NCBI RefSeq assembly: GCF_003268675.1
Contig: NZ_CP029378.1
Coordinates: 3,472,001 to 3,536,000 of the forward strand
Direction: 5' to 3'
DNA: 64,000 nucleotides
Source: Streptomyces bacillaris
GTDB lineage: Bacteria; Actinomycetota; Actinomycetes; Streptomycetales; Streptomycetaceae
Shown: in pieces, positions 46,407 to 59,588 of the stretch
Layout of the letters: every line of letters begins with the position of its first letter
How positions within the stretch are numbered: the first letter of the stretch is position 1
Program-made: the position numbers and the translations under genes
The notes under the pieces: generated by a model
Database searches by the model: none
What the model was told of the DNA's origin: nothing
Seen by the model: only the letters and a program-made list of their open reading frames with translations

Positions 46407-46760
46407 CAGCCCACCCTTCCGTTGAAGTGGCTCAAGAACTGGTCTTCGGAGGCGTACGCCGCTCGCTACCAAGCGGCTTCCTTTTCAAGTGACTTCGGCT
46501 TGCCAAATGCCTGAAGCTGCATGACGCACAAGCGCTCGTGCTCAATCGTCCTGACCAATGAGGTGTGACGGTAAAGCCGCCTACCGATCAGGCCCACACC
46601 ACGGTTGGTCTAGGCCCTCATTCCTTCGAGACCCCACGGGCCTGTCGCGCCGTCCTGTCGACCACACGCTTCTGCACGGAGACAGGGGCAACGAAGTCGC
46701 CAGTGTCGAAGGGCCTACGTGACAGCCTTGCGGATGCACGTATCAATCCGCTCGCACCGG

Positions 46761-47249
46761 TCAGTCCTCTTCACAGATGTCCTCCGGCAACAGGTGCCGC
46801 GCTGTCGCCAGCAGCCGCTCCAGCCGCGCCGGAACCGTCTCCACATCCTGCAGAAGCCAGTACGCGTAGGCTGCAGTGCCTTTGGCCCAGCCGGATAGCA
46901 CCTCCTCGTACAGAGCCCAGGTGCCAGCTCGCACCTCCTTTCTGCACTCCTCTGCGATTCCTTCGTCATCAACGACGGTGAGAGAACTGAGAAGTTCAAG
47001 AAACCGATGGCGGGCCGAAGGAGAAATACCACGGTCGGCCAGCCCGGCCATGAGCACCCGTGCAACGGGAACCGCAGTCTTCGTCGTCCAGCTGTCCTGG
47101 ATCACGTGGAAGTCAATACCGCGCGGTTCAGCCTCCTCCAGTGTCCTGGCACGGGCCATCCGCAACAGATCTCCTGGCACATGCGCGGCTGATGGGCACT
47201 TGCGGCAGGGGAGCGCGGACCAGTCGTACAGCCCGATCTCCAACTCCAT
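46761..47249 (-). CDS. Second immunity-like protein, paralogue of the Rhs immunity protein
   Basis: The 162-residue protein is clearly related to the one at 47622-48128. Both begin MELEIGLYDWSALPC, share SAAHVP, ARVLMAGLADR and LLATARHLLP, and end EED. The two cysteines of the N-terminal CRKC/CRSC pair are conserved, possibly for metal. Its role is inferred from position: next to the Rhs toxin's own immunity gene and directly behind an orphan toxin-tip fragment. It may protect against a toxin variant, or be a relic. ATG 47249 is used; GTG 47267 is an alternative. Confidence 0.75.
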   Translation of the reverse strand: MELEIGLYDWSALPCRKCPSAAHVPGDLLRMARARTLEEAEPRGIDFHVIQDSWTTKTAVPVARVLMAGLADRGISPSARHRFLELLSSLTVVDDEGIAEECRKEVRAGTWALYEEVLSGWAKGTAAYAYWLLQDVETVPARLERLLATARHLLPEDICEED

Positions 47250-47265
47250 CGTCGTGATTGCCTTC

Positions 47266-47547
47266 ACCTGCCCAGTATCCCAACTCGTCCCACAAGCCAA
47301 CCGACTCCTCTTCTACGCCGGGTTCAAACTGGCCGGGGGACGGGTAGTCAAGCTGACACTTCAGGCCGCCTTTCTCCGGCCCCGCGACAACAGTGTCATC
47401 CGGCTGACGGCTCGCGTTGTACGCGATGGTGAACCGTACCTTCGTGGGGTCGCCGCCGAGCGCGTGCACGACGTTGCCCTCGGCACAGTAGCTGAGCCCG
47501 GTTTTACAGCCGCCCGACTGGGCGAGGGCAACGTCTCCCGTATCAAT
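47266..47547 (-). pseudogene. Orphan Rhs toxin-tip (deaminase-like) fragment
   Basis: The frame from about 47547 repeats the C-terminal toxin tip of the neighbouring Rhs protein almost exactly at first (TGDVALAQSGGC, YCAEGNVVHALGGDPTKVRFTIAY) and then diverges. It has no upstream Rhs shell, no start of its own and no clean stop before the downstream immunity gene. In the second zinc motif the first cysteine is lost (EKGGLKCQ against VKPVCKQCQ), so it should be inactive. This is a displaced tip cassette, as known from Rhs/CDI loci that swap toxin ends by recombination. Confidence 0.8.
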
Positions 47548-47562
47548 CCGCTCACACAGAGA

Positions 47563-47603
47563 ACGGGCAGGACCTCGCTTCGTCGGCATGAGGTCCTGCC
47601 CGT
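47563..47603 (-). terminator. Hairpin terminator after the first immunity gene
   Basis: Perfect 14-base arms ACGGGCAGGACCTC and GAGGTCCTGCCCGT enclose a 13-base loop, 18 bases beyond the stop at 47622. Confidence 0.85.
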
Positions 47604-47621
47604 CACTCCGCCCGCCGCCGG

Positions 47622-48128
47622 TCAGTCCTCCTCGTAGAGGTCATCCGGCAGCAGGTGTCGCGCTGTCGCGAGGAGACGGTCCACGCGGGCCGGGTTGGTC
47701 TCCGCGTCCTTCAGGAGCCAGTAGGCGAGAAGGGCGCTTCCCTTGGAGTCACCGGACAGGATCTCCTCGTACAGGGCCCAGATACCGCCTTTGACCGCGT
47801 CCAGGCACTCAGCGGCAAGGTCCTCGTCATCCACGATGACGAACGACCAGAGGAGGTCCAGGAACTGGTTCCGGGCCACCGCCGAGACACTCCGGTCGGC
47901 CAGGCCGGCCATCAGCACCCGGGCAACCGGGACAACCGTCGGTGTCGCCCAGCTCTCCTGGAGCACGTGGTACTCAATGGCTTTCGGCCTGGCCTCCTCC
48001 CGGTTCTGCGCACGGGCCATCCGCAGCAGTTCCGCGGGGACGTGCGCGGCTGACGGACAGCTGCGGCAGGGGAGCGCGGACCAGTCGTACAGTCCGATCT
48101 CCAACTCCATGGTGTTCATTGTTCTCAT
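47622..48128 (-). CDS. Putative immunity protein of the Rhs toxin
   Basis: The 168-residue protein is small, acidic and helical, and starts only two bases after the stop codon of the giant Rhs gene, the usual place for the immunity gene that protects the producer from its own toxin tip. It begins MRTMNTMELEIGLYDWSAL and contains CRSC near the N-terminus. I do not recognise the family, but its paralogue next door shows it duplicates together with toxin tips. Start ATG 48128, 48119 or 48110. Confidence 0.82.
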   Translation of the reverse strand: MRTMNTMELEIGLYDWSALPCRSCPSAAHVPAELLRMARAQNREEARPKAIEYHVLQESWATPTVVPVARVLMAGLADRSVSAVARNQFLDLLWSFVIVDDEDLAAECLDAVKGGIWALYEEILSGDSKGSALLAYWLLKDAETNPARVDRLLATARHLLPDDLYEED

Positions 48129-48130
48129 CC

Positions 48131-51100
48131 CTAGAAGAACTGGTGCCCCCAGATGCCGCCTTCCTCAGCAACGACACCTGACTCGAACTGGAACGGTGAC
48201 TGGTAGTCCACCTGGCACTGCTTGCACACGGGCTTCACCTCGACCGTGCGTACACCGTCGTCGAATTTCACGGTGTACGCGATGGTGAACCGTACCTTCG
48301 TCGGGTCGCCGCCGAGCGCGTGCACGACGTTGCCCTCGGCACAGTAGCTGAGCCCGGGTTTGCAGCCGCCCGACTGCGCGAGGGCGACGTCTCCCGTCTC
48401 GATGTTGTAGCCGCCCGCGTATGTCTTGGACGCCTTCCTCTTGGAGGCGTGCTTGAGGGCGAAATCGGCCACCTGGGACGATGCCTTCTCCATCTGCCCG
48501 GCGTGTGTCCAGCCGGCCGGAGCCTTCTGGACCTCCACCACGGGCGCGCTCTTGCCGCCCACTCCGCGTGCGCTGACCCGCGGTGGCGGAACGACCCTCG
48601 GCGCGACCTTCGGTGGCGCCGCCTTCTGCGTCGTGCCGGAGAACAGCCTGCCGAGGGCTCCCTTGACGACCTTGCTGACGCTGCCGGGCTTGGACAGCAC
48701 CTTGCCGCCGCCGCCCGCTCCGGCAGCACCGGGGAAGAACGGCGTGAGGAACTTGCCGACCCAGTAGGAGACCTTGTACCAGGCTCCGCTCTGGTCCGGG
48801 CCGCGGACGGTCTTGTAGAGACTGATCGGGCCCTTGCCCGCGCGGTCGTTCTTGATCTTCTGGGCGTTGCCCTCGGTCCAGCCCAACCGGTCGGTCCACG
48901 TGTAGACGCTCTCGGCCAGGTCGTAGTAGCCGTCGACGACACCGTTCTTGAGGCCCTTGGCAACCTGCTTGCCCTTGGAAGCGAGCTTGTCCAGCCACTT
49001 CCACTGGCCGGTGCTGTCGCTGAAGGTGACCGGGGAGTTCTCCGCGTACGCGTAGCCGTTGAGCTGCTGCGGATCCGTCAGGTCCATGATCGGGTCGACG
49101 CTCAGGAAACGGCCCGTCGACGGGTCGTACTCCCGGGCACCCAGATGGGTCAGCCCTGTGTCGCTCGTGTCGTCGGTGCCGTCGACGAACCCCTTGCTGC
49201 CCACCCACGGGACCGGAGCCACGCCCCGGGCGCCGCCGAACGGCAGGGTGCGCCGCTGCGACAACGCCTGGGTGGCGGCGTTCACGGAGAGGAGGCCGGT
49301 GCCCTGGTGGTCGGCGAGAGTGAAGGTGACGGAGCCGTCGTCCTCCTTGACCGCCTGGTTGCCTCCGCCGAGCGGGGTGTAGCGGGTCGCCTTGGCCTTG
49401 GCCGCGCCCTTGTCGAGGGTCACCTCGGTGTGGCCGAGGTACAGCGTGCTCTTCGAGCCTGTACGCCCGATGAGGCGGTTGCCCCCGGTGTCGTACAGGT
49501 ACTCGGTCACCTTGCTGCCGCCGCCCGACGTAGGCTCCGTGACCTTGGCCAGGTGGCCCTCGGCGTCCCAGGTGAGCTGCTGGGAGGCGTCGCCCCGGGG
49601 GCGGGCCGTCGTGTTGCCGATCTCGTCGTAGGAGTAGTCGTCCTGGGTGGTGGTGCCGTCGGGCAGCCGGGTCGAGACCGAGGTCAGGCCGTGCGGACGG
49701 GCGCTGCCCGGAGCCGGGTAGCTGTAGGTCCGCAGGGTGTCCTTGGCGCTGTCGCCGGAGACGTCGTGCAGGGTCTCGGAGAGGCGGTTACCCGTCTTGT
49801 CGTACGTGAAGGACTGCCAGTACGGTGCCGGGCCGCCGACCGTCCCGGCACCGGGCGCCGTGGCGCAGGTCTTGTCACCCTGCGTCCACGCCTTGGTCAG
49901 CCGCTGCAGATGGTCGTAGTCGAAGCACTGGGTGTCGGTGCCGGACCTGGAGGTGTCCGAGATCGACAGGATGTTGCCCAGGTCGTCATACCGATAGGTG
50001 TTGAACCGGTCGACGCCTGCCACGTCCTGGCGGTCCACCCGCGAGGTCGCGACCCGCTGGGTGCCCCACTCGTAGGTGTTGGTCACCTGCACCGGCTTGG
50101 CGCCGGGGGCGGTGCCGGACATCCGCTGCTGGAGCGGCTTGCCCGTCGAGGAGTACACGGTCTCCGCCGTGAACCCGTCACCGAGGAGCCCGGTCGGCCG
50201 CAGCGTGTCGGGGGCATAGCTGACGGTGTGGCTGCCGCCCGGCAGCGAACCGGCTGCCGAGTAGCTCACGGTGCTGGGCAGGCCGGAGGGGAGATAGGCG
50301 GTGCCGGTCTGATACGTGCCCGCGAGGGCGCCCTCCTGGGAGGGGATCACCACGGCGGTCCTGACCGGGCGGTAGAGCCGGTCGTACTGGGTGACCTTCG
50401 AGGTGTACTCGGCGCCGTTCACATAGCGCGTGGACTGGGCGAGTTGGCCCTTGGCACCGCTGATGGTGTCGTAGGTCCACTTGGCACGCAGGGTGCCGGT
50501 GGCGGAGCCGTCGCGCAGCTCGGTCTGGCGGCCCAGCCCGTCGTACACGTGCGCCAGGACGGTGCCCCGGGCGTCCTTGGTGGTGGTGAGCTGGCCCCGG
50601 TCGTCGTACGTACGGGTGGTGACACCCCGGTCGGGGTCCTCCGTCCGGACCTCATGGCCGCGCTGGTTGTAGGCGTACTTCCAGGAGTTGCCCGCCGGGT
50701 CGGTGACCTTGGCGAGTTCGCCCCGGGTCGTGTACGCGTAGGTGGTGGTGTCGTAAGGCGCGTCGGCGCTGCGCGAGTGGTGCTGGCGCAGCTCGGTCAC
50801 CAGACCACGGGCGTCCGCGATCGCGGTCGTGGCGGTGCCGCCCTCCGGCGGAATCACCGTGGTGCGGTCGCCGCCGTAGGTCTTCCGGGTGACCGCGAGT
50901 ACGGCGCCCCCGTCACCGTTTCCGGCGATGTCCTTGATCTCGGTCTCGCGGCCGAGGCCGTCGTAGACGTATCTCGTCTGGGTTTCGACGGTGAGGGCAT
51001 CGGCGGGTTTGAACAGACCGCGGCCGGGCGGCTCCTGGTCGTTGTAGTACGGAGCGAAGGTCTTGGCTGTCAGGCCCCGCTCGTCGTAGAAGACATCCGT

Positions 51101-54100
51101 GAGGATCCGGCCCCCATCCGGTCCTGGCTCCTGTACCTGGCGCTCCCGCAAGAACCCGTCGTACAGCGTGTAGGAAGAACGCTGGCCGCCCTTGTTGTCG
51201 AGGGTCCGGGTGCGGATCGCGACGGGCTTGTCCGCGTCGATGAAGTAGGTGAACTCGTAGCTCGGAGTCTGGTCGGTCCGTCGGTCGGCAAGCCAGATCC
51301 GGCTGATCCGGCCGAGCGCGTCGAAAGAGAACTCGGATCGTTTGCCGTTCGTGTCCACCTGTGCGGCGGGGCGACCGCGCACCGGGTCGAACTCGGTCAC
51401 CACGTTCTGCGCCGTCGCCGGGGTGCCCGCGGTGGCGGGCGGTGTCGTCTCCGTGACCTTGGCCGGGAAGCCGGTCGCGGGACTGTAGGCGGTGGTCGTC
51501 GTACGTCCGTCGGTGCGTGCGGTGCGGGCGGGCTGGCCCGTGCCGGTCACGGTGACGTCCGACGTCAGGTCGGTGGTGCTCAGGCGTCGGCCGTAGGAGT
51601 CGAACGTCGCCTTGGACTCCAGGTAGACGGCCTTGGTGCCGTCGTGGCTCTTGAGCGTGGCCGACGCGGTTGCGTCACCCTTGGTCGGAGCCGCGCCGTA
51701 CTCCCCGCCGTCGTAGGCGGTCCGGACGTCGGAGACCACGTCCTTGGAGCGGTCCGGCGTGGCGGAACAGGACCTGGTGACCGTCTCCTCCCTGGAGGGG
51801 AGGGTGATGATGCCGGTGCTGCCGCCGGCGTAGGTGGTCCGGGTGCAGCGGTCGTCGGACGGGGTGGTCGGGTCCCCCAGGTCCTCGGTCATGGTGACCC
51901 GCCCGGCCACCGTGTCGTAGGTGTTCCTGGTCTCGCTGACGCTCCAGGACTTCCCCGCACCGTTGTCCAGGGAGGTCCAGGAGGTGGACCGGGCGGTGCC
52001 GGTCAGGTTGGAGGTGACGGTGCCCCAGGTGCGGGTCTTCCTCGCGGTCTCGTGGTACCAGGGCCGGTCCACCGACTTCGACAGGATTTTGCCGTCGACG
52101 CCTGAGTGGACGACCGTCTTGTAGGCGAAGCCCGCCACCGACTCGTGGTCGGTGATGGGGTCTCCCTCACCACTGCCCAGAGTGACGGAGACCTTCTTGG
52201 TGCCGCCCGAGGTGGATTCCCTGTCGCCGTCCATGCCGCGCAGGAAGTAGCTGTCCTGCTGCGTCCTCAGGGCTGCCTGGCCGCCCTGACCGCCGGTCTT
52301 GACCCGGACCTGGCCGTAGCCGCGCCACTGGGACCAGGTCTTGTGCTTCTCCTTCGTCAGGCCGTCGTCATCGTCGTAGTGCCAGGCCGCGTCACCGAGG
52401 TACTCGTACTGGGTCACGCCGTCGGGCGCGCCGCCGGTGCGGTCGGTCTTGGTGGTGGAGGTGACGACGTACTTGTTGAACCACTGCCGTTCGGGCGCGG
52501 CGTCGGCGTCGCCGCCGATGAACTGCGGGTAGCAGCGGGTGCCGTTCTTCTCGGGCGTGGGCAGCCTGTCCCAGGAGCAGACGGGGTCCGAGTAGTTGAT
52601 GTCGACCTGGCCGCCGTACTCGTCGGTGACGGTGGACAGCCGGGACTTGACGAAGGGCGCGTAGCCGTCACCGATCCGGTCGAGCCGGTTGGCCCGCTGG
52701 GTGTAGGCGAAGCTGGTCTTCGGCAGGGTGACCGCCGGGGTGGCGGTGTGACCGGTGCGCTGGACGGAGTCCAGGAGCAGCTGGTAGTCGATGTCGGCCT
52801 GGCCCCAGCGGTGGCCGAGCTTCCAGGAGTCGACGTCCGTGTACGCGCTGCCCTTCAGGACCTGGGTGGTGATCCCGGTCAGGCGGTCACGGGTGAAGAA
52901 GACGGGGGACAGCCGGCCCCTGTCGCAGTCCTTGCCCTCCGCGCAGTGCAGGTCCCAGGGCGTGTCGTACCAGTAGAAGGCGTCCTTGTCGATCGACTTG
53001 CAGTCAGTGTTGGCGTCGGGCAGGCAGCGCTCGGAGGTCGCGAAGTTCACCTTGCCCAGCGCCTTGGCGCTGTAGGCGGAGCCGTCCTTCAGGCCGTACT
53101 CGATCCGGTCCAGCGAACCGCCGCGCACGTACGGCGTGTTGTCCTTGGCCTTGAGGTTACGGCCGTAGGCGTTCTTCTCCTGGTCGTAGTAGTAGGCGAC
53201 CGCGTTGCCATGCGGGTCCACGACATAGTCGAGGTTCCAGCGCCAGCCCTGCTGGCACCAGGAGTCCGCGAAGGCCGCCTTGTGGCAGGGCTCCCCGCTG
53301 TTGTTGCCGAAGACCGGAACCGTCCACGTGGAATCGGTGGTCTCCTTGCCGCTGCTCCAGCCGGGCAGCCGGTTGTAGCCGAAGTAGTAGTGCACGCCGT
53401 CGGGGTCGGTGAGCCGCCAGTACTCGCCGTCGTTGTCACCGTTGCCGCGGTCGGCGGAGCGCAGCCGGGTGATCCGGGTGCCGTCGTCCTGCTTGAGGCG
53501 GAACTCGTCGTCGCCCGTCGGGACCAGCTCACCACCCTTTCCGTTGAAGGTGATGAACGCGTTGTCGTAACCCCAGCACAGGTCCGCCGGCTTGTTGCCG
53601 TCCGCGTTCTTGACACCGTCGTCGTAGCACGGCTTGTAACGCCGCTCAATATAGCCGGACCACAGGTCGAAGCCGTCGCCCACCCAGGACGACTGGTTGT
53701 TGGTGGTACCGGTGCGCCCGTCGATCTGACCCGAGTTGTACGACAGGCCGAGGTCCGGCGTGAGCCCGCCGGGCACGTCGGGCACCGGGATGTCATAGGA
53801 CCAGCTGAAGTCACCGGTGTTGAGGTTGGTGTCCCAGGACGCGGACGGAGAGAGCTTGGTGGCGGTGAAGTCCCCCGTCCCGGCGGTCTCCGCGGCCATG
53901 GCGGCGAGGACCGTGAGGCCGGAGGACCGCAGGGCGACCGAGGAGGCGGTGAGGGTCCTCCGTTCGGTGTCGTTGACCGTCGGTACCGGGGTGATCGTGC
54001 GGCATTCTTCCCGGGAGGGATCGTCCGCGGCACAGGCGGGCAGCTGGACGAGCGTCAGACGGGAGCCGTAACCACCGCCGTACGCCTCGGAGAAGGAGGA

Positions 54101-54676
54101 GTAGTCGACGGTGGCGTCCACTTTCCCAGGGCGGTCGTCCCGGCCGTCGCCCGCCTCCAGGGTGAAGAGCACCCCGTCGATCCCGACGCGTTCGGCCGCT
54201 CGGTGCCCGAGCACCTTGGCTTCGACGCGTCCCTTGGCGCCGACGGAGGCCCCCTGTGACGGCGCCTCGGTCGGGGCACTCCGGGCGGTGCCCGCGCCGT
54301 CGGCCGCCGCGCGTGGGGCGCTGACCGCGATCGGGAGCGAGCGGAGCTGTGTGGCGAGTCTGTTCGCGGCGGGCTCGCCCGGGGCCGGCGCGGCGGAGAC
54401 GCTGACAACCCGCTCGCCCGGCTCGGGCCAGGCGGCCCGGGGGGCGCCCTCCGGCGTCCTGGGTGCGTCAGCTGCGGAGCGCGGCTCGGCGCCGAAGATG
54501 TCCCGCCCCTTGACCGGCTTCTCGGCGGAGGGCAGACCGGGTAGGTCCCACCGCGGTGAGGGAGCCGCTGACGCGACTGCTCCCTGCATCACCGTGGCCA
54601 CCATGACGGTGGACAGGAACAAGGCCACTCTTCGTCGGGCCGCCAAAGGCGGGAGCAATTTGGATGTTATGGACAT
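48131..54676 (-). CDS. Secreted Rhs-repeat protein with C-terminal deaminase-like toxin tip
   Basis: The 2181-residue protein has a signal peptide (MSITSKLLPPLAARRRVALF, then AVASAAP). It continues with a SpvB/Rhs-type domain (SFSEAYGGGYGSRLTLVQLP, LSYNSGQIDGRTG), many YD/Rhs repeats, and the canonical Rhs core end RFLSVDPIMDLTDPQQLNGYAYAENSPVTFSDSTG. After about 230 residues of linker comes the tip with a zinc-deaminase motif pair: C2112-A-E2114 and C2151-K-Q-C2154. By analogy with polymorphic toxins it would be secreted, carried in the Rhs shell and deliver a nucleotide/nucleic acid deaminase to competitors. The deaminase subfamily is not assigned. ATG 54676 is chosen for the signal peptide. 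Confidence 0.88.
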   Translation of the reverse strand: MSITSKLLPPLAARRRVALFLSTVMVATVMQGAVASAAPSPRWDLPGLPSAEKPVKGRDIFGAEPRSAADAPRTPEGAPRAAWPEPGERVVSVSAAPAPGEPAANRLATQLRSLPIAVSAPRAAADGAGTARSAPTEAPSQGASVGAKGRVEAKVLGHRAAERVGIDGVLFTLEAGDGRDDRPGKVDATVDYSSFSEAYGGGYGSRLTLVQLPACAADDPSREECRTITPVPTVNDTERRTLTASSVALRSSGLTVLAAMAAETAGTGDFTATKLSPSASWDTNLNTGDFSWSYDIPVPDVPGGLTPDLGLSYNSGQIDGRTGTTNNQSSWVGDGFDLWSGYIERRYKPCYDDGVKNADGNKPADLCWGYDNAFITFNGKGGELVPTGDDEFRLKQDDGTRITRLRSADRGNGDNDGEYWRLTDPDGVHYYFGYNRLPGWSSGKETTDSTWTVPVFGNNSGEPCHKAAFADSWCQQGWRWNLDYVVDPHGNAVAYYYDQEKNAYGRNLKAKDNTPYVRGGSLDRIEYGLKDGSAYSAKALGKVNFATSERCLPDANTDCKSIDKDAFYWYDTPWDLHCAEGKDCDRGRLSPVFFTRDRLTGITTQVLKGSAYTDVDSWKLGHRWGQADIDYQLLLDSVQRTGHTATPAVTLPKTSFAYTQRANRLDRIGDGYAPFVKSRLSTVTDEYGGQVDINYSDPVCSWDRLPTPEKNGTRCYPQFIGGDADAAPERQWFNKYVVTSTTKTDRTGGAPDGVTQYEYLGDAAWHYDDDDGLTKEKHKTWSQWRGYGQVRVKTGGQGGQAALRTQQDSYFLRGMDGDRESTSGGTKKVSVTLGSGEGDPITDHESVAGFAYKTVVHSGVDGKILSKSVDRPWYHETARKTRTWGTVTSNLTGTARSTSWTSLDNGAGKSWSVSETRNTYDTVAGRVTMTEDLGDPTTPSDDRCTRTTYAGGSTGIITLPSREETVTRSCSATPDRSKDVVSDVRTAYDGGEYGAAPTKGDATASATLKSHDGTKAVYLESKATFDSYGRRLSTTDLTSDVTVTGTGQPARTARTDGRTTTTAYSPATGFPAKVTETTPPATAGTPATAQNVVTEFDPVRGRPAAQVDTNGKRSEFSFDALGRISRIWLADRRTDQTPSYEFTYFIDADKPVAIRTRTLDNKGGQRSSYTLYDGFLRERQVQEPGPDGGRILTDVFYDERGLTAKTFAPYYNDQEPPGRGLFKPADALTVETQTRYVYDGLGRETEIKDIAGNGDGGAVLAVTRKTYGGDRTTVIPPEGGTATTAIADARGLVTELRQHHSRSADAPYDTTTYAYTTRGELAKVTDPAGNSWKYAYNQRGHEVRTEDPDRGVTTRTYDDRGQLTTTKDARGTVLAHVYDGLGRQTELRDGSATGTLRAKWTYDTISGAKGQLAQSTRYVNGAEYTSKVTQYDRLYRPVRTAVVIPSQEGALAGTYQTGTAYLPSGLPSTVSYSAAGSLPGGSHTVSYAPDTLRPTGLLGDGFTAETVYSSTGKPLQQRMSGTAPGAKPVQVTNTYEWGTQRVATSRVDRQDVAGVDRFNTYRYDDLGNILSISDTSRSGTDTQCFDYDHLQRLTKAWTQGDKTCATAPGAGTVGGPAPYWQSFTYDKTGNRLSETLHDVSGDSAKDTLRTYSYPAPGSARPHGLTSVSTRLPDGTTTQDDYSYDEIGNTTARPRGDASQQLTWDAEGHLAKVTEPTSGGGSKVTEYLYDTGGNRLIGRTGSKSTLYLGHTEVTLDKGAAKAKATRYTPLGGGNQAVKEDDGSVTFTLADHQGTGLLSVNAATQALSQRRTLPFGGARGVAPVPWVGSKGFVDGTDDTSDTGLTHLGAREYDPSTGRFLSVDPIMDLTDPQQLNGYAYAENSPVTFSDSTGQWKWLDKLASKGKQVAKGLKNGVVDGYYDLAESVYTWTDRLGWTEGNAQKIKNDRAGKGPISLYKTVRGPDQSGAWYKVSYWVGKFLTPFFPGAAGAGGGGKVLSKPGSVSKVVKGALGRLFSGTTQKAAPPKVAPRVVPPPRVSARGVGGKSAPVVEVQKAPAGWTHAGQMEKASSQVADFALKHASKRKASKTYAGGYNIETGDVALAQSGGCKPGLSYCAEGNVVHALGGDPTKVRFTIAYTVKFDDGVRTVEVKPVCKQCQVDYQSPFQFESGVVAEEGGIWGHQFF

Positions 54677-54781
54677 AGAGGAGCGAATCCTTGGTTGTGA
54701 TCCGAGGCCGCGCGGCTGCGCACGGCCATGAGGACAAGGAAGAAAAAAGGAAGAGAAGAAACGGGACAGTGGAGCGGCACG

Positions 54782-54821
54782 GGATGCCGTGCTGTGGGCA
54801 CTGGCCCAGAGCACGGCATCC
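54782..54821 (-). terminator. Hairpin between the LamG and Rhs genes
   Basis: Perfect 12-base arms GGATGCCGTGCT and AGCACGGCATCC lie 28 bases beyond the LamG stop. Reading on, a pyrimidine-rich tract follows on the minus strand (54732-54770). It probably separates the two transcripts, so the Rhs gene may have its own promoter. Confidence 0.7.
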
Positions 54822-54848
54822 AGCCGGTACCGTTCGGCGGAGCGGTGC

Positions 54849-57800
54849 TCAGCCGTTCCCGGGAACCTCGGTCGGGATGTCGAACCATGTCCCGGCGAGC
54901 TTCTCGACCTGAGCATCGGTCAGCGTGCCCTGGAACGCCCAGACGTCATCGATCAGGCCGGGGAAGTAGTCGCCCCAGGTGCCGCCAGTCTTGGCCCGGC
55001 CCACCTGGAGGGACTTGGTGGCCTTGAAGGCCAGGGTGTTCACCGACCAGGAGACCCGGTTCCCGCACGCGGCCTCGTCGGCCTCCCCGTCCCCGTCCCC
55101 GCAGGCAATCTCCTGGAGGACACCGTTGACGTAGAGACGTGCCTCCTTGGTGAACCCGTCGTAGACGACCGCCAGGTGGTTCCATTCCCGCGCGTCGTAG
55201 AACTCGCTGTTGACGACACGCACCGTCGAGGCCTCCGTGCTGTCCTTGTCCGGCAGGGCCAGCTCCCAGTGGCCGAGGCCGTCCGGATCGGAGGCGTCCG
55301 GCACGAAGCGGACGTTGAAGGCGCTCTGGACGGTGCCTTCAGCGCTGACCACTGACGCCGCTCGCTGGGGAAGTGCCGCGGCCTGGGCCCAGGCAGTCAC
55401 CGTGTAACTGGCCCCGGTGTCTACCGGGACGGACGCAGTGGCCGCGTAGCCGCCGACGCCGTCCAACTCCAGGCCGCCCGCGTCGATGTAGGCCAGGTCC
55501 GACTTCTTCGCACCGCCGTTGAGGGTGAGCGCGCTGCCGCCGGACACGGCGTTCGGCGTCGTGACCGGGCTGGTGCCGGAGGTCTGCTCGAACGTCCAGC
55601 GGCTCTTCACCAGGGGCCGCCGCTGGAAGATCTGGCGGACCTCGTCGTCGGCCACCGGCCGGTCGAAGAGCCGGACGTCGTCGATCGTGCCGGGGAAGTG
55701 GTCGACGTACGTGCCCTGCCAGATGGCACGGCCGATCTGCACGGCACCCTGCGCCTCCCATGTCCTGGGAGCCGCGTCGACACCCTGCAGCTGCCCGTTG
55801 ACGTAGAGGCGGATCTGCTGGGCCGTGGCGTCGTGAACCGCCACCAGGTGGGCCCATTCACCGGGCCTGGCCGGCTGGGTGGCGGCCACCCGCTGGTCGC
55901 GGATGTTGCCCGCCTGCACGTCCTCCAGCGAGGTCCGCAGGCTCCAGGTGTTCGCCCCGCCCTCGTAGGACAGATAGAAGGGGCTGTAGAAGGTGCCGCT
56001 CTGGCTGACCACGGTCCGGTTGCCGGTGACCGTGGTCTCGGGCAGCTTCGCCCACGCCGAGACCGTGTACGAGCGGGCCGTGTTGAGCACCGGGCGGTCG
56101 GTGGCCGCGTAGGAGGTGGCCCCGTCGAACTTCAGGGCCCTGCCCGCGACCCCGTCCACACCGCCGGCCACCGGTCCGTGCGGGGTCAGCGGCTGCTCGG
56201 GCGCGGATCCGGTGGCCTCCGTGGCGCCCGTCGGCTCGTCCAGCGGGAAGACGGCGCTCGGCGGCCGGCCCGTGGTGGTCTCCTGCCCCTGGTGCAGTCG
56301 CGTGGCCTCGGCCGCCGAGACGGCTCGGTCGAAGATCTGGACGTCGTCGATCGTGCCGGGGAAGAACGACTTGTGGGTGCCGCTGTAGATTCCGGCTCCC
56401 AGCTGCAGCCCCCGGCGCGCCTCCCACGCGGTGGTGTACGCGGTGGAGCCGGCGAGCTTGCCGTCGACGTACAGCCGCAGTTGCTTGGCCTTGCCGTCGT
56501 ACACGCCCACCAGATGGGTCCATCGCCCGGCCTCGGCACCGCCCGCTGCGGGGGCCATGGCCCGCGCGATGGAGGCACCGGCGGTGTCCGAGGTGTACTG
56601 GTTGAACACCCAGCGGTCGTAGTACTGGGAGTAGTACAGCTCGAAGCCCGGCGAGTGGTTGCCCGGCTGCGCCGCAATGATGGCCGCCTCACTGGGCATC
56701 CGGTCGAGCCGTGCCCAGGCCGCCACGGAGAAGCTGTCGGAGGTGTCCACCACGGTCAGGTCGGACGCGGCGTACCCGGTCGTGCCATCGAAACGCAGGC
56801 CCGTGCCTGTCCTGCCCTCGGCACCGAGTTCCGCTCCGCCGTGCAGTCGCACGGTCCGCGACGTGGTGGTACCGGCGGCCTTGGTGGCACCCGCCGGTTC
56901 GTCCAGTTGCCAGACGGCCCGCTCGGGCTGCCCGGCCTTCACGCGGAACTGATAGGTCCGGATCTCCGAGCCGTTGCCCGCCTGGTCGAACGCCTGGGCG
57001 GTCACGAAGTTGAGCCCTGGCCGTGCGGGGAGCAGCCGCGCGGACTTGGCCGCGCCTCCGGTGGTGGTGATCTGGTTCGCGGCGGACGGGTCGGTGTTGA
57101 AGCCGTAGCGGTAACGGATCACGTCCGTCGAGGGCGAGTCGATGGAGAACGTACCGTACTGGCCCACTCCGTCGTACCACGGATCGTCCGGGTTCTCCGG
57201 GTCCGAGGCCGGATAGTGGCCCGAGGAGATCGCCGGTGCCGCGGGCACGCTGGTGTCGTACACGAAGTAGCAGGCTGTCGGATCACCCGCCGACGACCAG
57301 GGCGAGTACTGCGCCCCGTCGTACGAGCGCACATGCCAGTGAACCGTCCTGTTGGCCGGGATCGAGGTCGGCAAGCCTATGGAGAAGCTGGAACCGGACT
57401 TCTTGTACGACGTACGGGCGGGCTTCCACCGGGCGATCAGGCCCTTGCCGTCACCGGAGTCCCAGTACGCCTGGAACTCCACCGCGATGTCGTCACCGTC
57501 CGGGTCGGTGACACCGTTCGCGTAGATCTTGCCCAGGGACCGCACCCGGGGCGCCTGGGCCGGCGCCTTGCAGGTGCCTCCGTACTCGGCGGTCAGCTGG
57601 GACATCTTCACCTGCGTCGGGGGGCGGTTGTACTTCACCCGCAGGAACGCCTTGTCGGAGAAACGCTTCCAGCCGTAGCGGTCGGACTCATTGGAGGCGC
57701 GCAGACCGAAGGTCATCGTGGACCACTTGCCGTTGGCGGCCTCCTGCACCGCCGCCTTCACGTCGAACTCGGCGTCCTTCGCGGCACAGCCGGTGTACCC

Positions 57801-59129
57801 GTGGGCGAACGACTTCGCCGCGAGCTTCTTGAGCCAGAACGACGCCGGGCTCTGGGTGTTCCACGTCGTCGACGAGGAGATGTCCTTCGTACGCCACAGC
57901 TGCACCTCGCGCGCCGAACACGACGCCGAGTGGACGTTGCGCACCACGAACTCGGCGGAGAGAACGGTCTTCCCGGCGTAGGTCGAGGTGGGCAGACGGT
58001 AGAACAGGCGCTTGGTGTCCTGCGGTGCGCAGTAGTCCCAGCCGCAGTACCCCATGCCCGCATCGGACTTGCCGTTGAACTTCCACTGCGGCGACGAGGC
58101 CCAGTGTTTCGACGCCATGGTCCACGCCGACGCCCGGGGCGAATACCACTGGGGGTCGATAAAGACCGGGTATTCGGTGTCCTTGCTCCTCAGCACGCCG
58201 AGATCGGGCTTGAGTACCAGTTCGCCATTGCCCGGAGGGAGTTCCACGCCGACCGGGGCGAGCTTGCCGCTCTCGGCGGGATGGGCTTCGGTGACGCCTG
58301 TCGTCGGCGGGACGGCAGCCGTACGGGCCCGGAGCCCACTCCTGCCTTCGGTGCGGACGTCTCCCCCGTCCGCACCGTCACTGGAGTCCCACATCTGCGG
58401 CATCGGCGCTTCGAAGACCGAAGTGCCGGCCCCCTTGTCGACCGCGACCAGACCGCCGCTTTCGGTCTCCTTGACGTCCATCCCGCCCGCGGCGAGCTTC
58501 ATCCGCAGCTCGGTGAGGGCAGGACTGGCCGCGGCTGCGGCGCTGTTGACGACGAGCAACTGGGTGAATCCGTCCTCCTGCGCGCCCATCCGCAGATCGA
58601 CGTCAGGCAGAACGTTTCGGTACGTCGCCGTGGCGCCGTCCAGTTCGGGTGCGGGCAACCTGCCGGGCCAGGACAGTGCCAGCTCCCGGCCTGCCTTGTT
58701 CATCCGCACCAACGGTGCGCCGGACCCGCCACCGGAGAACTCCAGTCCGACGGTGACGGCCTTGGGCACGACCACCCCCTTGCCGGTCGGCACCAAGGCC
58801 GTGTCCACCGGCTTCCACTCGCCGCCGACCCTGGTACGGACGGGACGCACGTACTCCCTTTGCTCCAGATCCCCCTCGGGGGTCACGAACACCTCGGTGC
58901 TCGCACCACGCATCGAGACGATCTCCACACTCCGGCCGGTCCGTTCGGCCTCCGCCCGCGCTTCCTCCTCGGAATACGGTGCCTTCTCGGCAGCCTCACG
59001 AGGCTGCTTCCCCGGAGTGCTCGACGAGACCGCAGCCGCGGTTGCGGGCAGCAGCCCGACCGCGAGAAGAGAGCTCAGAGCGATCGCCGTGATTCCCCCA
59101 ACGCCGCGCATACGCGCATGCGCCATCAT
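54849..59129 (-). CDS. Giant secreted protein with three LamG-like jelly-roll domains
   Basis: The 1426-residue protein has a signal peptide (GGITAIALSSLLAVGLLPATAAAV), a long N-terminal region seen in exported Streptomyces proteins that precede Rhs genes (VRPVRTRVGGEWKPVDTALVP), a DNRLRE-like region with RLFYRLPTSTYAGKTVLSAEFVVRNVHS, and then three LamG domains marked by GTTGYAASD, GATSYAATD and GVGGYAATAS, each with PGTIDDV or PGLIDDV. LamG domains bind glycans or proteins, so it may stick the Rhs toxin to target surfaces. The start TTG at 59135 is less likely than ATG 59129, which has GGGGGG upstream. Confidence 0.88.
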   Translation of the reverse strand: MMAHARMRGVGGITAIALSSLLAVGLLPATAAAVSSSTPGKQPREAAEKAPYSEEEARAEAERTGRSVEIVSMRGASTEVFVTPEGDLEQREYVRPVRTRVGGEWKPVDTALVPTGKGVVVPKAVTVGLEFSGGGSGAPLVRMNKAGRELALSWPGRLPAPELDGATATYRNVLPDVDLRMGAQEDGFTQLLVVNSAAAAASPALTELRMKLAAGGMDVKETESGGLVAVDKGAGTSVFEAPMPQMWDSSDGADGGDVRTEGRSGLRARTAAVPPTTGVTEAHPAESGKLAPVGVELPPGNGELVLKPDLGVLRSKDTEYPVFIDPQWYSPRASAWTMASKHWASSPQWKFNGKSDAGMGYCGWDYCAPQDTKRLFYRLPTSTYAGKTVLSAEFVVRNVHSASCSAREVQLWRTKDISSSTTWNTQSPASFWLKKLAAKSFAHGYTGCAAKDAEFDVKAAVQEAANGKWSTMTFGLRASNESDRYGWKRFSDKAFLRVKYNRPPTQVKMSQLTAEYGGTCKAPAQAPRVRSLGKIYANGVTDPDGDDIAVEFQAYWDSGDGKGLIARWKPARTSYKKSGSSFSIGLPTSIPANRTVHWHVRSYDGAQYSPWSSAGDPTACYFVYDTSVPAAPAISSGHYPASDPENPDDPWYDGVGQYGTFSIDSPSTDVIRYRYGFNTDPSAANQITTTGGAAKSARLLPARPGLNFVTAQAFDQAGNGSEIRTYQFRVKAGQPERAVWQLDEPAGATKAAGTTTSRTVRLHGGAELGAEGRTGTGLRFDGTTGYAASDLTVVDTSDSFSVAAWARLDRMPSEAAIIAAQPGNHSPGFELYYSQYYDRWVFNQYTSDTAGASIARAMAPAAGGAEAGRWTHLVGVYDGKAKQLRLYVDGKLAGSTAYTTAWEARRGLQLGAGIYSGTHKSFFPGTIDDVQIFDRAVSAAEATRLHQGQETTTGRPPSAVFPLDEPTGATEATGSAPEQPLTPHGPVAGGVDGVAGRALKFDGATSYAATDRPVLNTARSYTVSAWAKLPETTVTGNRTVVSQSGTFYSPFYLSYEGGANTWSLRTSLEDVQAGNIRDQRVAATQPARPGEWAHLVAVHDATAQQIRLYVNGQLQGVDAAPRTWEAQGAVQIGRAIWQGTYVDHFPGTIDDVRLFDRPVADDEVRQIFQRRPLVKSRWTFEQTSGTSPVTTPNAVSGGSALTLNGGAKKSDLAYIDAGGLELDGVGGYAATASVPVDTGASYTVTAWAQAAALPQRAASVVSAEGTVQSAFNVRFVPDASDPDGLGHWELALPDKDSTEASTVRVVNSEFYDAREWNHLAVVYDGFTKEARLYVNGVLQEIACGDGDGEADEAACGNRVSWSVNTLAFKATKSLQVGRAKTGGTWGDYFPGLIDDVWAFQGTLTDAQVEKLAGTWFDIPTEVPGNG

Positions 59130-59588
59130 TCCCAATCCCCCCGCATCATGAATATTTTATGTATCCCTTATGAGCGACAGGAACCTAGCTCACGAACGGA
59201 CGTCCGGTCCAAGTCGTTCGCTTCCGGCCCACGCCGGCCTGCGCGACAACGGGCTCTACCCCATCAACTGCGGACACTTCCCTTCCGGTGAACCATGGGG
59301 CGCCCAAAGGGGAGTTCAGCCAAAGAGACGCGGCCGGCTGCAGGACCGGGTTCCAGCAACTCCCGGGAGATCCGACGATCAGGCCAGGAAGCCCATCCCC
59401 TGCGCTTCCCGCGGGCCTGCGACAGGGCTGGCATCCAGACACGGCGTGACCGTGCCTTCTGCCGAGCGGATGGCAGCACCGTTGCCTTGAAGGTGGGCGG
59501 GCCATTGGCAGGCGCACGCACCACGCATCCCGGACGGAGAGGAGGCCCCCCGACATGCCTCTCACCGAAGAGCGATCCGGAGAAGCAC
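59130..59588. other. Intergenic region upstream of the LamG gene
   Basis: The first 45 bases are AT-rich (AATATTTTATG patch near 59148-59162) and likely hold the LamG-Rhs promoter. The rest shows only weak frames without a ribosome-binding site; I recognise no gene. Confidence 0.4.

What the first reader, a model, noticed from the sequence alone, without database searches (positions are those of the whole stretch)
47266..54676. Secreted Rhs protein with deaminase-like tip
CAE and CKQC motifs at the very end mark a zinc deaminase fold. Rhs proteins with a plain signal peptide in Streptomyces are poorly studied, and the route of delivery to a target cell without a type VI system is unknown. The tip family is not one I can name.
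Basis: partly seen in the sequence, partly recalled or inferred. Interest (0 to 1): 0.75.

Follow-up and report, generated by a model that had tools for sequence, protein, structure and literature searches.

The report
Secreted Rhs deaminase toxin with immunity
A Streptomyces gene encodes a giant secreted protein whose very tip looks like an uncatalogued kind of zinc base-deaminase toxin, followed by the gene that probably protects the producer, and a broken spare copy of both lies beside it.

Summary
A 2181-residue secreted Rhs protein is encoded on the minus strand (48131-54676). Its tip carries CAE (2112-2114) and CKQC (2151-2154). The reported interval runs past the gene into the immunity gene and an orphan cassette.

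The tip is conserved: 14 of 392 other Streptomyces genomes carry relatives, and single loci turned up in Micromonospora and Actinoplanes. C66-A67-E68, C105 and C108 (tip numbering) are invariant in 21 relatives. No Pfam, NCBIfam, PHROG or PDB sequence family matches it. The AlphaFold model is confident (pLDDT 92), and its listed PDB matches are all cytidine or blasticidin-S deaminases, though weak (best E 0.012). So it has a deaminase-like fold but belongs to no family in the libraries searched.

A family of about 165-residue helical proteins, also uncatalogued, lies 13-168 bp downstream in 12 of 12 cassettes measured: very probably immunity. The tip sits on several carriers, as in polymorphic toxins.

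A truncated orphan tip that lost a zinc cysteine, plus a second intact immunity gene, follow at 46739-47557 between direct repeats unique in the genome.

The system type is known; the tip and immunity families look new. Substrate, toxicity and membrane crossing are untested.

The parts
48131..54676 (-). Rhs polymorphic toxin gene, 2181 aa: signal peptide, RHS/YD repeats, Rhs-associated core (end near residue 1892), linker, C-terminal tip
48134..48538 (-). C-terminal tip domain, residues 2047-2181, deaminase-like fold
   Evidence: AlphaFold pLDDT 92.3, pTM 0.86; Foldseek to cytidine/blasticidin-S deaminases; conserved family
48335..48343 (-). CAE motif (C2112 predicted zinc ligand, E2114 predicted proton shuttle), invariant
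48215..48226 (-). CKQC motif (C2151, C2154 predicted zinc ligands), invariant cysteines
47622..48128 (-). Predicted immunity gene, 168 aa, all-helical, 2 bases after the Rhs stop codon
   Evidence: conserved partner in 12/12 cassettes; AlphaFold pLDDT 93.8; weak ARM-repeat-like matches
47561..47604 (-). Strong hairpin after the immunity gene, terminator-like
   Evidence: MFE -46.5, z -5.2
47287..47550 (-). Orphan tip remnant: starts at tip residue about 45, lacks the first helix and strand, lost the first Cys of CxxC
46761..47249 (-). Second, intact copy of the immunity gene (69% identical protein)
47539..47557 (.). Direct repeat copy at the 5' edge of the orphan cassette
46739..46757 (.). Direct repeat copy at the 3' edge of the orphan cassette; core GAGCGGATTGATACG occurs only at these two sites in the 7.9 Mb genome
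54849..59135 (-). Upstream secreted protein with DNRLRE and Laminin_G_3 domains; possible surface-anchoring partner
   Evidence: same pairing in genome G381 and LamG-like segments in the same locus in L030, L031, L061

Best explanation
This is a secreted Rhs polymorphic toxin with its immunity gene. The Sec machinery exports a cell-surface or secreted Rhs shell that encloses and presents a C-terminal tip of about 135 residues. The tip is a zinc-dependent deaminase (C2112, C2151 and C2154 bind zinc, E2114 shuttles the proton). Once inside a competing actinobacterium it most likely deaminates cytosine in nucleic acid. The 168-residue helical protein encoded right behind it binds and blocks the tip in the producer and its kin. 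Shown by computation: the gene layout, motif conservation, predicted fold, linkage to the partner gene, and exchange of the tip among carriers. Inferred: enzymatic activity, cytosine in nucleic acid as substrate (about 0.6), surface display, uptake by the target cell, and inhibition by direct binding.
For: C66, A67, E68, C105 and C108 (tip numbering) are invariant in 21 relatives of 25-74% identity. AlphaFold gives pLDDT 92.3 with the expected order helix-strand-strand-CAE helix-strand-CxxC helix. All 50 listed PDB structural matches are cytidine or blasticidin-S deaminases, best E 0.012, probability up to 0.97. The partner gene is on the same strand 13-168 bp downstream in 12/12 cassettes; co-occurrence 11 of 13 tip genomes against 38 of 283 others, Fisher p 5.5e-8, not corrected for kinship. 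The tip is attached to several carriers: this Rhs type, other Rhs types, and proteins with a HINT-like segment. An orphan tip-immunity cassette lies behind the gene. Signal-peptide-like N-terminus. No T6SS VipA gene in the genome. LamG domains as cell-wall anchors and deaminase tips on Sec-exported RHS toxins are described in PMC3482391.
Against: Foldseek E-values stay above 0.001 and TM-scores of the listed hits are 0.32-0.49, so the fold match is distant. The model shows no strands of 3 or more residues after the CxxC helix, where most deaminases have two more; a strand before that helix (residues 96-102) is extra. Profile comparison with YwqJ and DddA-like deaminases found nothing, but the two known families do not find each other either. 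Substrate and toxicity are untested. One remote relative (L097) has CxxxC instead of CxxC.
Confidence: 0.82

Rival explanations
1. The tip has a deaminase fold but acts on free nucleotides or nucleosides, or on a small molecule, rather than on DNA or RNA.
For: The closest solved folds are free-nucleoside cytidine deaminases and blasticidin-S deaminase, which use the same three-Cys plus CAE site (the site chemistry from general knowledge).
Against: Those enzymes are the best represented small deaminases in PDB, so the match does not settle substrate. The deaminase toxins that were tested (DddA, SsdA, BaDTF3, UmbC1) act on DNA (PMC7901873, PMC11062931).
Confidence: 0.25
2. The tip is a structural zinc-binding domain with no enzyme activity, for example a receptor-binding or anchoring tip.
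For: No activity has been shown. Profile hits in PDB, all weak, are mostly to zinc fingers (best E 0.008).
Against: The glutamate of CAE is as invariant as the cysteines, which a purely structural site would not need. The model resembles deaminases. A linked partner gene follows every cassette measured.
Confidence: 0.08
3. The tip is a member of a known deaminase toxin family (YwqJ, DddA/SCP1.201, DYW or others) missed by weak similarity.
For: Same motif logic (CxE and CxxC), and the deaminase superfamily is very diverse.
Against: No deaminase model of Pfam matches any of the 14 tip members scanned, even at E 10 (HMMER filters limit sensitivity). Profile-profile comparison to YwqJ and to DddA-like loci fetched here is negative. 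The immunity protein matches no catalogued immunity family.
Confidence: 0.12
4. The locus is decaying and no longer active.
For: The orphan tip next to it is truncated and lacks a zinc cysteine. A relative (L029) has a frameshifted tip beside a transposase-like gene.
Against: The main gene is open over 2181 codons, all catalytic residues are kept, and genome G381 has the same gene pair intact at about 75% protein identity.
Confidence: 0.08

Closest known systems
Polymorphic toxin systems with RHS repeats exported by Sec/T2SS (PMC3482391)
   Same: Signal peptide, RHS shell, variable C-terminal tip, immunity gene directly behind, orphan cassette, LamG domains as proposed anchors
   Different: The tip and immunity families are not among the library families searched here
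YwqJ-type deaminase toxins (PF14431)
   Same: CxE plus CxxC, polymorphic toxin tips
   Different: No HMM or profile-profile match; different motif surroundings and different immunity
DddA-like / SCP1.201 deaminases (PF14428), including Burkholderia DddA; functionally also Streptomyces UmbC1
   Same: Zinc deaminase tips in toxins; UmbC1 is a Streptomyces case with C-to-T activity
   Different: HxE instead of CAE, no profile match; UmbC1 has an Imm1 immunity protein and rides an umbrella particle, not an Rhs shell (PMC11062931)
Cytidine deaminase (Cdd) and blasticidin-S deaminase
   Same: Closest solved folds; CAE plus two further Cys ligands
   Different: Metabolic or resistance enzymes with strands after the CxxC helix; low TM-score, no sequence match

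Membership tests
Zinc deaminase superfamily (CDA-like) | [HC]xE and CxxC zinc/proton-shuttle motifs | tested here: met
   Invariant in 21 relatives
Zinc deaminase superfamily (CDA-like) | Core fold with the CxE helix and CxxC helix against a sheet | tested here: met
   AlphaFold pLDDT 92.3; all listed PDB matches are deaminases, though E is above 0.001
Zinc deaminase superfamily (CDA-like) | Two further strands after the CxxC helix (usual, not known to be universal) | tested here: inconclusive
   None of 3 or more residues in the model; a strand precedes the helix instead. Prediction only, coordinates not available
Zinc deaminase superfamily (CDA-like) | Deaminase activity | not testable with these tools
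   Needs an assay
YwqJ-deaminase PF14431 | Score above the Pfam cut-off | tested here: not met
   No hit at E up to 10; hhalign probability 0.3%
DddA-like PF14428 | Score above the Pfam cut-off, HxE motif | tested here: not met
   No hit; hhalign probability 1.2%; motif is CAE
Polymorphic toxin system | RHS shell with exchangeable C-terminal tip | tested here: met
   tip on different carriers
Polymorphic toxin system | Linked immunity gene | tested here: met
   Linkage in 12/12 cassettes; protection itself not tested
Polymorphic toxin system | Orphan tip/immunity cassettes | tested here: met
   46739-47557
T6SS-delivered Rhs effector | T6SS in the genome and no signal peptide | tested here: not met
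   No VipA (only this marker tested); signal-peptide-like N-terminus
Known Imm families | Pfam or NCBIfam immunity model hit | tested here: not met
ARM/HEAT-type immunity proteins | Helical-repeat fold | tested here: inconclusive
   Confident all-helical model, armadillo-like matches only at E 0.35 or worse

The most novel reading that the evidence does not exclude
The tip founds a separate clade of minimal deaminases, in which a strand inserted before the CxxC helix replaces the strands that normally follow it, with a substrate and sequence preference unlike DddA, SsdA or YwqJ, paired with its own helical immunity family.
Probability: 0.4. Interest if true: 0.65.

Novelty: new variant of a known kind. 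Interest (0 to 1): 0.5.

Why it matters
A small deaminase tip from an uncatalogued family, with a ready-made inhibitor, is directly testable for base changes and would add to the few families known to mutate the nucleic acids of competitors. It also bears on how secreted Rhs proteins act without a type VI system in the genus that makes most antibiotics. The orphan cassette with conversion-like tracts gives a view of tip diversification at one locus.

Tried and rejected
Pfam, NCBIfam, PHROGs, PADLOC and PDB sequence searches of tip and/or immunity: nothing specific. A zinc-finger reading from the weak PDB profile hits was rejected because the CAE glutamate is invariant and the model is deaminase-like. 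Profile-profile comparison with YwqJ and DddA-like tips was negative, and so was the control between those two families, so it only argues against same-family membership. Viral structure library: weak hits, the best one again a deaminase. Single-protein scan of genome contigs found none; an alignment of close members found 12 loci. Genes next to immunity homologues without a tip were inspected for other deaminase tips: none convincing, one probable tip remnant in L085. The sigma-70/terminator consensus scan was uninformative.

Full report
The gene. The finding lies on the minus strand. ORF 48131-54916(-) is open for 2261 codons; the start at 54676 gives 2181 residues and opens with a basic stretch, a hydrophobic segment and an ASAA site, a plain signal peptide by eye. 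RHS repeats and the Rhs-associated core are recognised. The core ends near residue 1892; a linker leads to the tip, residues 2047-2181.

The tip is a real family. A search of 393 Streptomyces genomes found relatives in 15, the window's own included; a profile search of a sample of 296 found 13. Further loci came from Streptomyces, Micromonospora and Actinoplanes and other Actinomycetes. In 21 aligned tips of 25-74% identity to the window's, the invariant positions are G49, S56, C66, A67, E68, C105 and C108: the whole zinc and proton-shuttle set of a deaminase. One remote relative has CxxxC.

Fold. AlphaFold with 21 relatives gives pLDDT 92.3 and pTM 0.86: helix 12-30, strands 39-45 and 51-55, helix 67-74 with CAE, strands 82-84, 87-93 and 96-102, helix 106-111 with the second cysteine pair. 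Foldseek against PDB lists cytidine deaminases and blasticidin-S deaminases in all 50 rows shown, best E 0.012, probability up to 0.97, TM-scores 0.32-0.49. No match is below 0.001, so the relation is distant. The strands that usually follow the CxxC helix are missing in the model and an extra strand precedes it. That is a prediction, and coordinates were not at hand to check the zinc site.

No named family. Pfam, NCBIfam, PHROGs and PDB sequence searches give nothing specific for the tip. Profile comparisons with YwqJ and DddA-like tips fetched here are negative, though those two families do not detect each other either.

The partner. The next gene, 47622-48128(-), starts two bases after the Rhs stop. 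Its relatives follow the tip on the same strand at 13-168 bp in 12 of 12 cassettes measured, and co-occurrence in genomes is strong (11 of 13 against 38 of 283, Fisher p 5.5e-8, not corrected for kinship). It has no Pfam or NCBIfam family. Its model is confident and all-helical (pLDDT 93.8), with weak armadillo-repeat matches only. Immunity is the natural reading; protection is not shown. The family is wider than the tip (49 of 296 genomes), so many genomes seem to hold it without this tip.

Polymorphic behaviour. The same tip is carried by this Rhs type (also in G381, about 75% identical), by other RHS proteins, and by proteins with a HINT-like segment before the tip. In L030 and L031 the immunity domain is fused behind WD40-like repeats.

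The orphan cassette. Behind the immunity gene and a strong hairpin (z -5.2) lies a second cassette, 46739-47557. Its tip begins at about residue 45, so the first helix and strand are gone, and it reads GGLKCQ where the others read PVCxxCQ; it is very unlikely to be an active deaminase. Its immunity gene is intact. It is bounded by a 19-bp direct repeat (18 of 19 identical) whose 15-bp core occurs nowhere else in the 7.9 Mb genome, even with one mismatch. Identity between the two cassettes is patchy: about 96-98% over the CAE block and the first 45 bp of the immunity gene, but 45-60% between them, whereas the G381 gene shows no such jumps. That looks like local gene conversion. In the DNA alignment of the G381 locus to the window, only one cassette is found there. 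Tip, immunity and orphan have 63-66% G+C against 71.5% for the window, which fits acquisition by transfer but does not prove it.

Delivery. No VipA gene was found in the genome (one marker only). The upstream gene 54849-59135(-) encodes a secreted DNRLRE/LamG protein. The same pair is adjacent in G381, and LamG-like segments occur with the toxin in L030, L031 and L061. PMC3482391 proposes that LamG domains anchor such toxins to the producer's wall. A hairpin with a T-rich tail lies between the two genes (read, 54782-54821), so they may not share one transcript. How the tip crosses the target membrane is unknown.

Verdict. The system is of a known type. The tip and immunity families appear uncatalogued in the libraries searched. 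The deaminase fold is well supported; the substrate is not. Known deaminase toxins that were tested act on DNA (PMC7901873), including UmbC1 of Streptomyces (PMC11062931), which makes cytosine in nucleic acid the best first guess.

Noticed in passing
46739-47557: Orphan tip-immunity cassette between 19-bp direct repeats unique in the genome, with gene-conversion-like tracts shared with the main cassette.
   Followed up: partly
L030, L031 (Micromonospora, Actinoplanes), downstream of the tip: The immunity domain is fused behind WD40-like repeats.
   Followed up: no
L029 (Streptomyces sp. NRRL WC-3549): A close relative of the tip is frameshifted and lies next to a transposase-like gene.
   Followed up: no
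G000:C1:4832436-4832819 (outside the window): The same genome has a YwqJ-deaminase domain protein; most matches in that 297-genome search were also in Streptomyces.
   Followed up: no
Streptomyces genomes: The immunity family occurs in 49 of 296 genomes, 38 of them without a detected tip, so stand-alone immunity genes seem common.
   Followed up: partly
54782-54821: Terminator-like hairpin with a T-rich tail between the LamG gene and the Rhs gene, read by eye.
   Followed up: no
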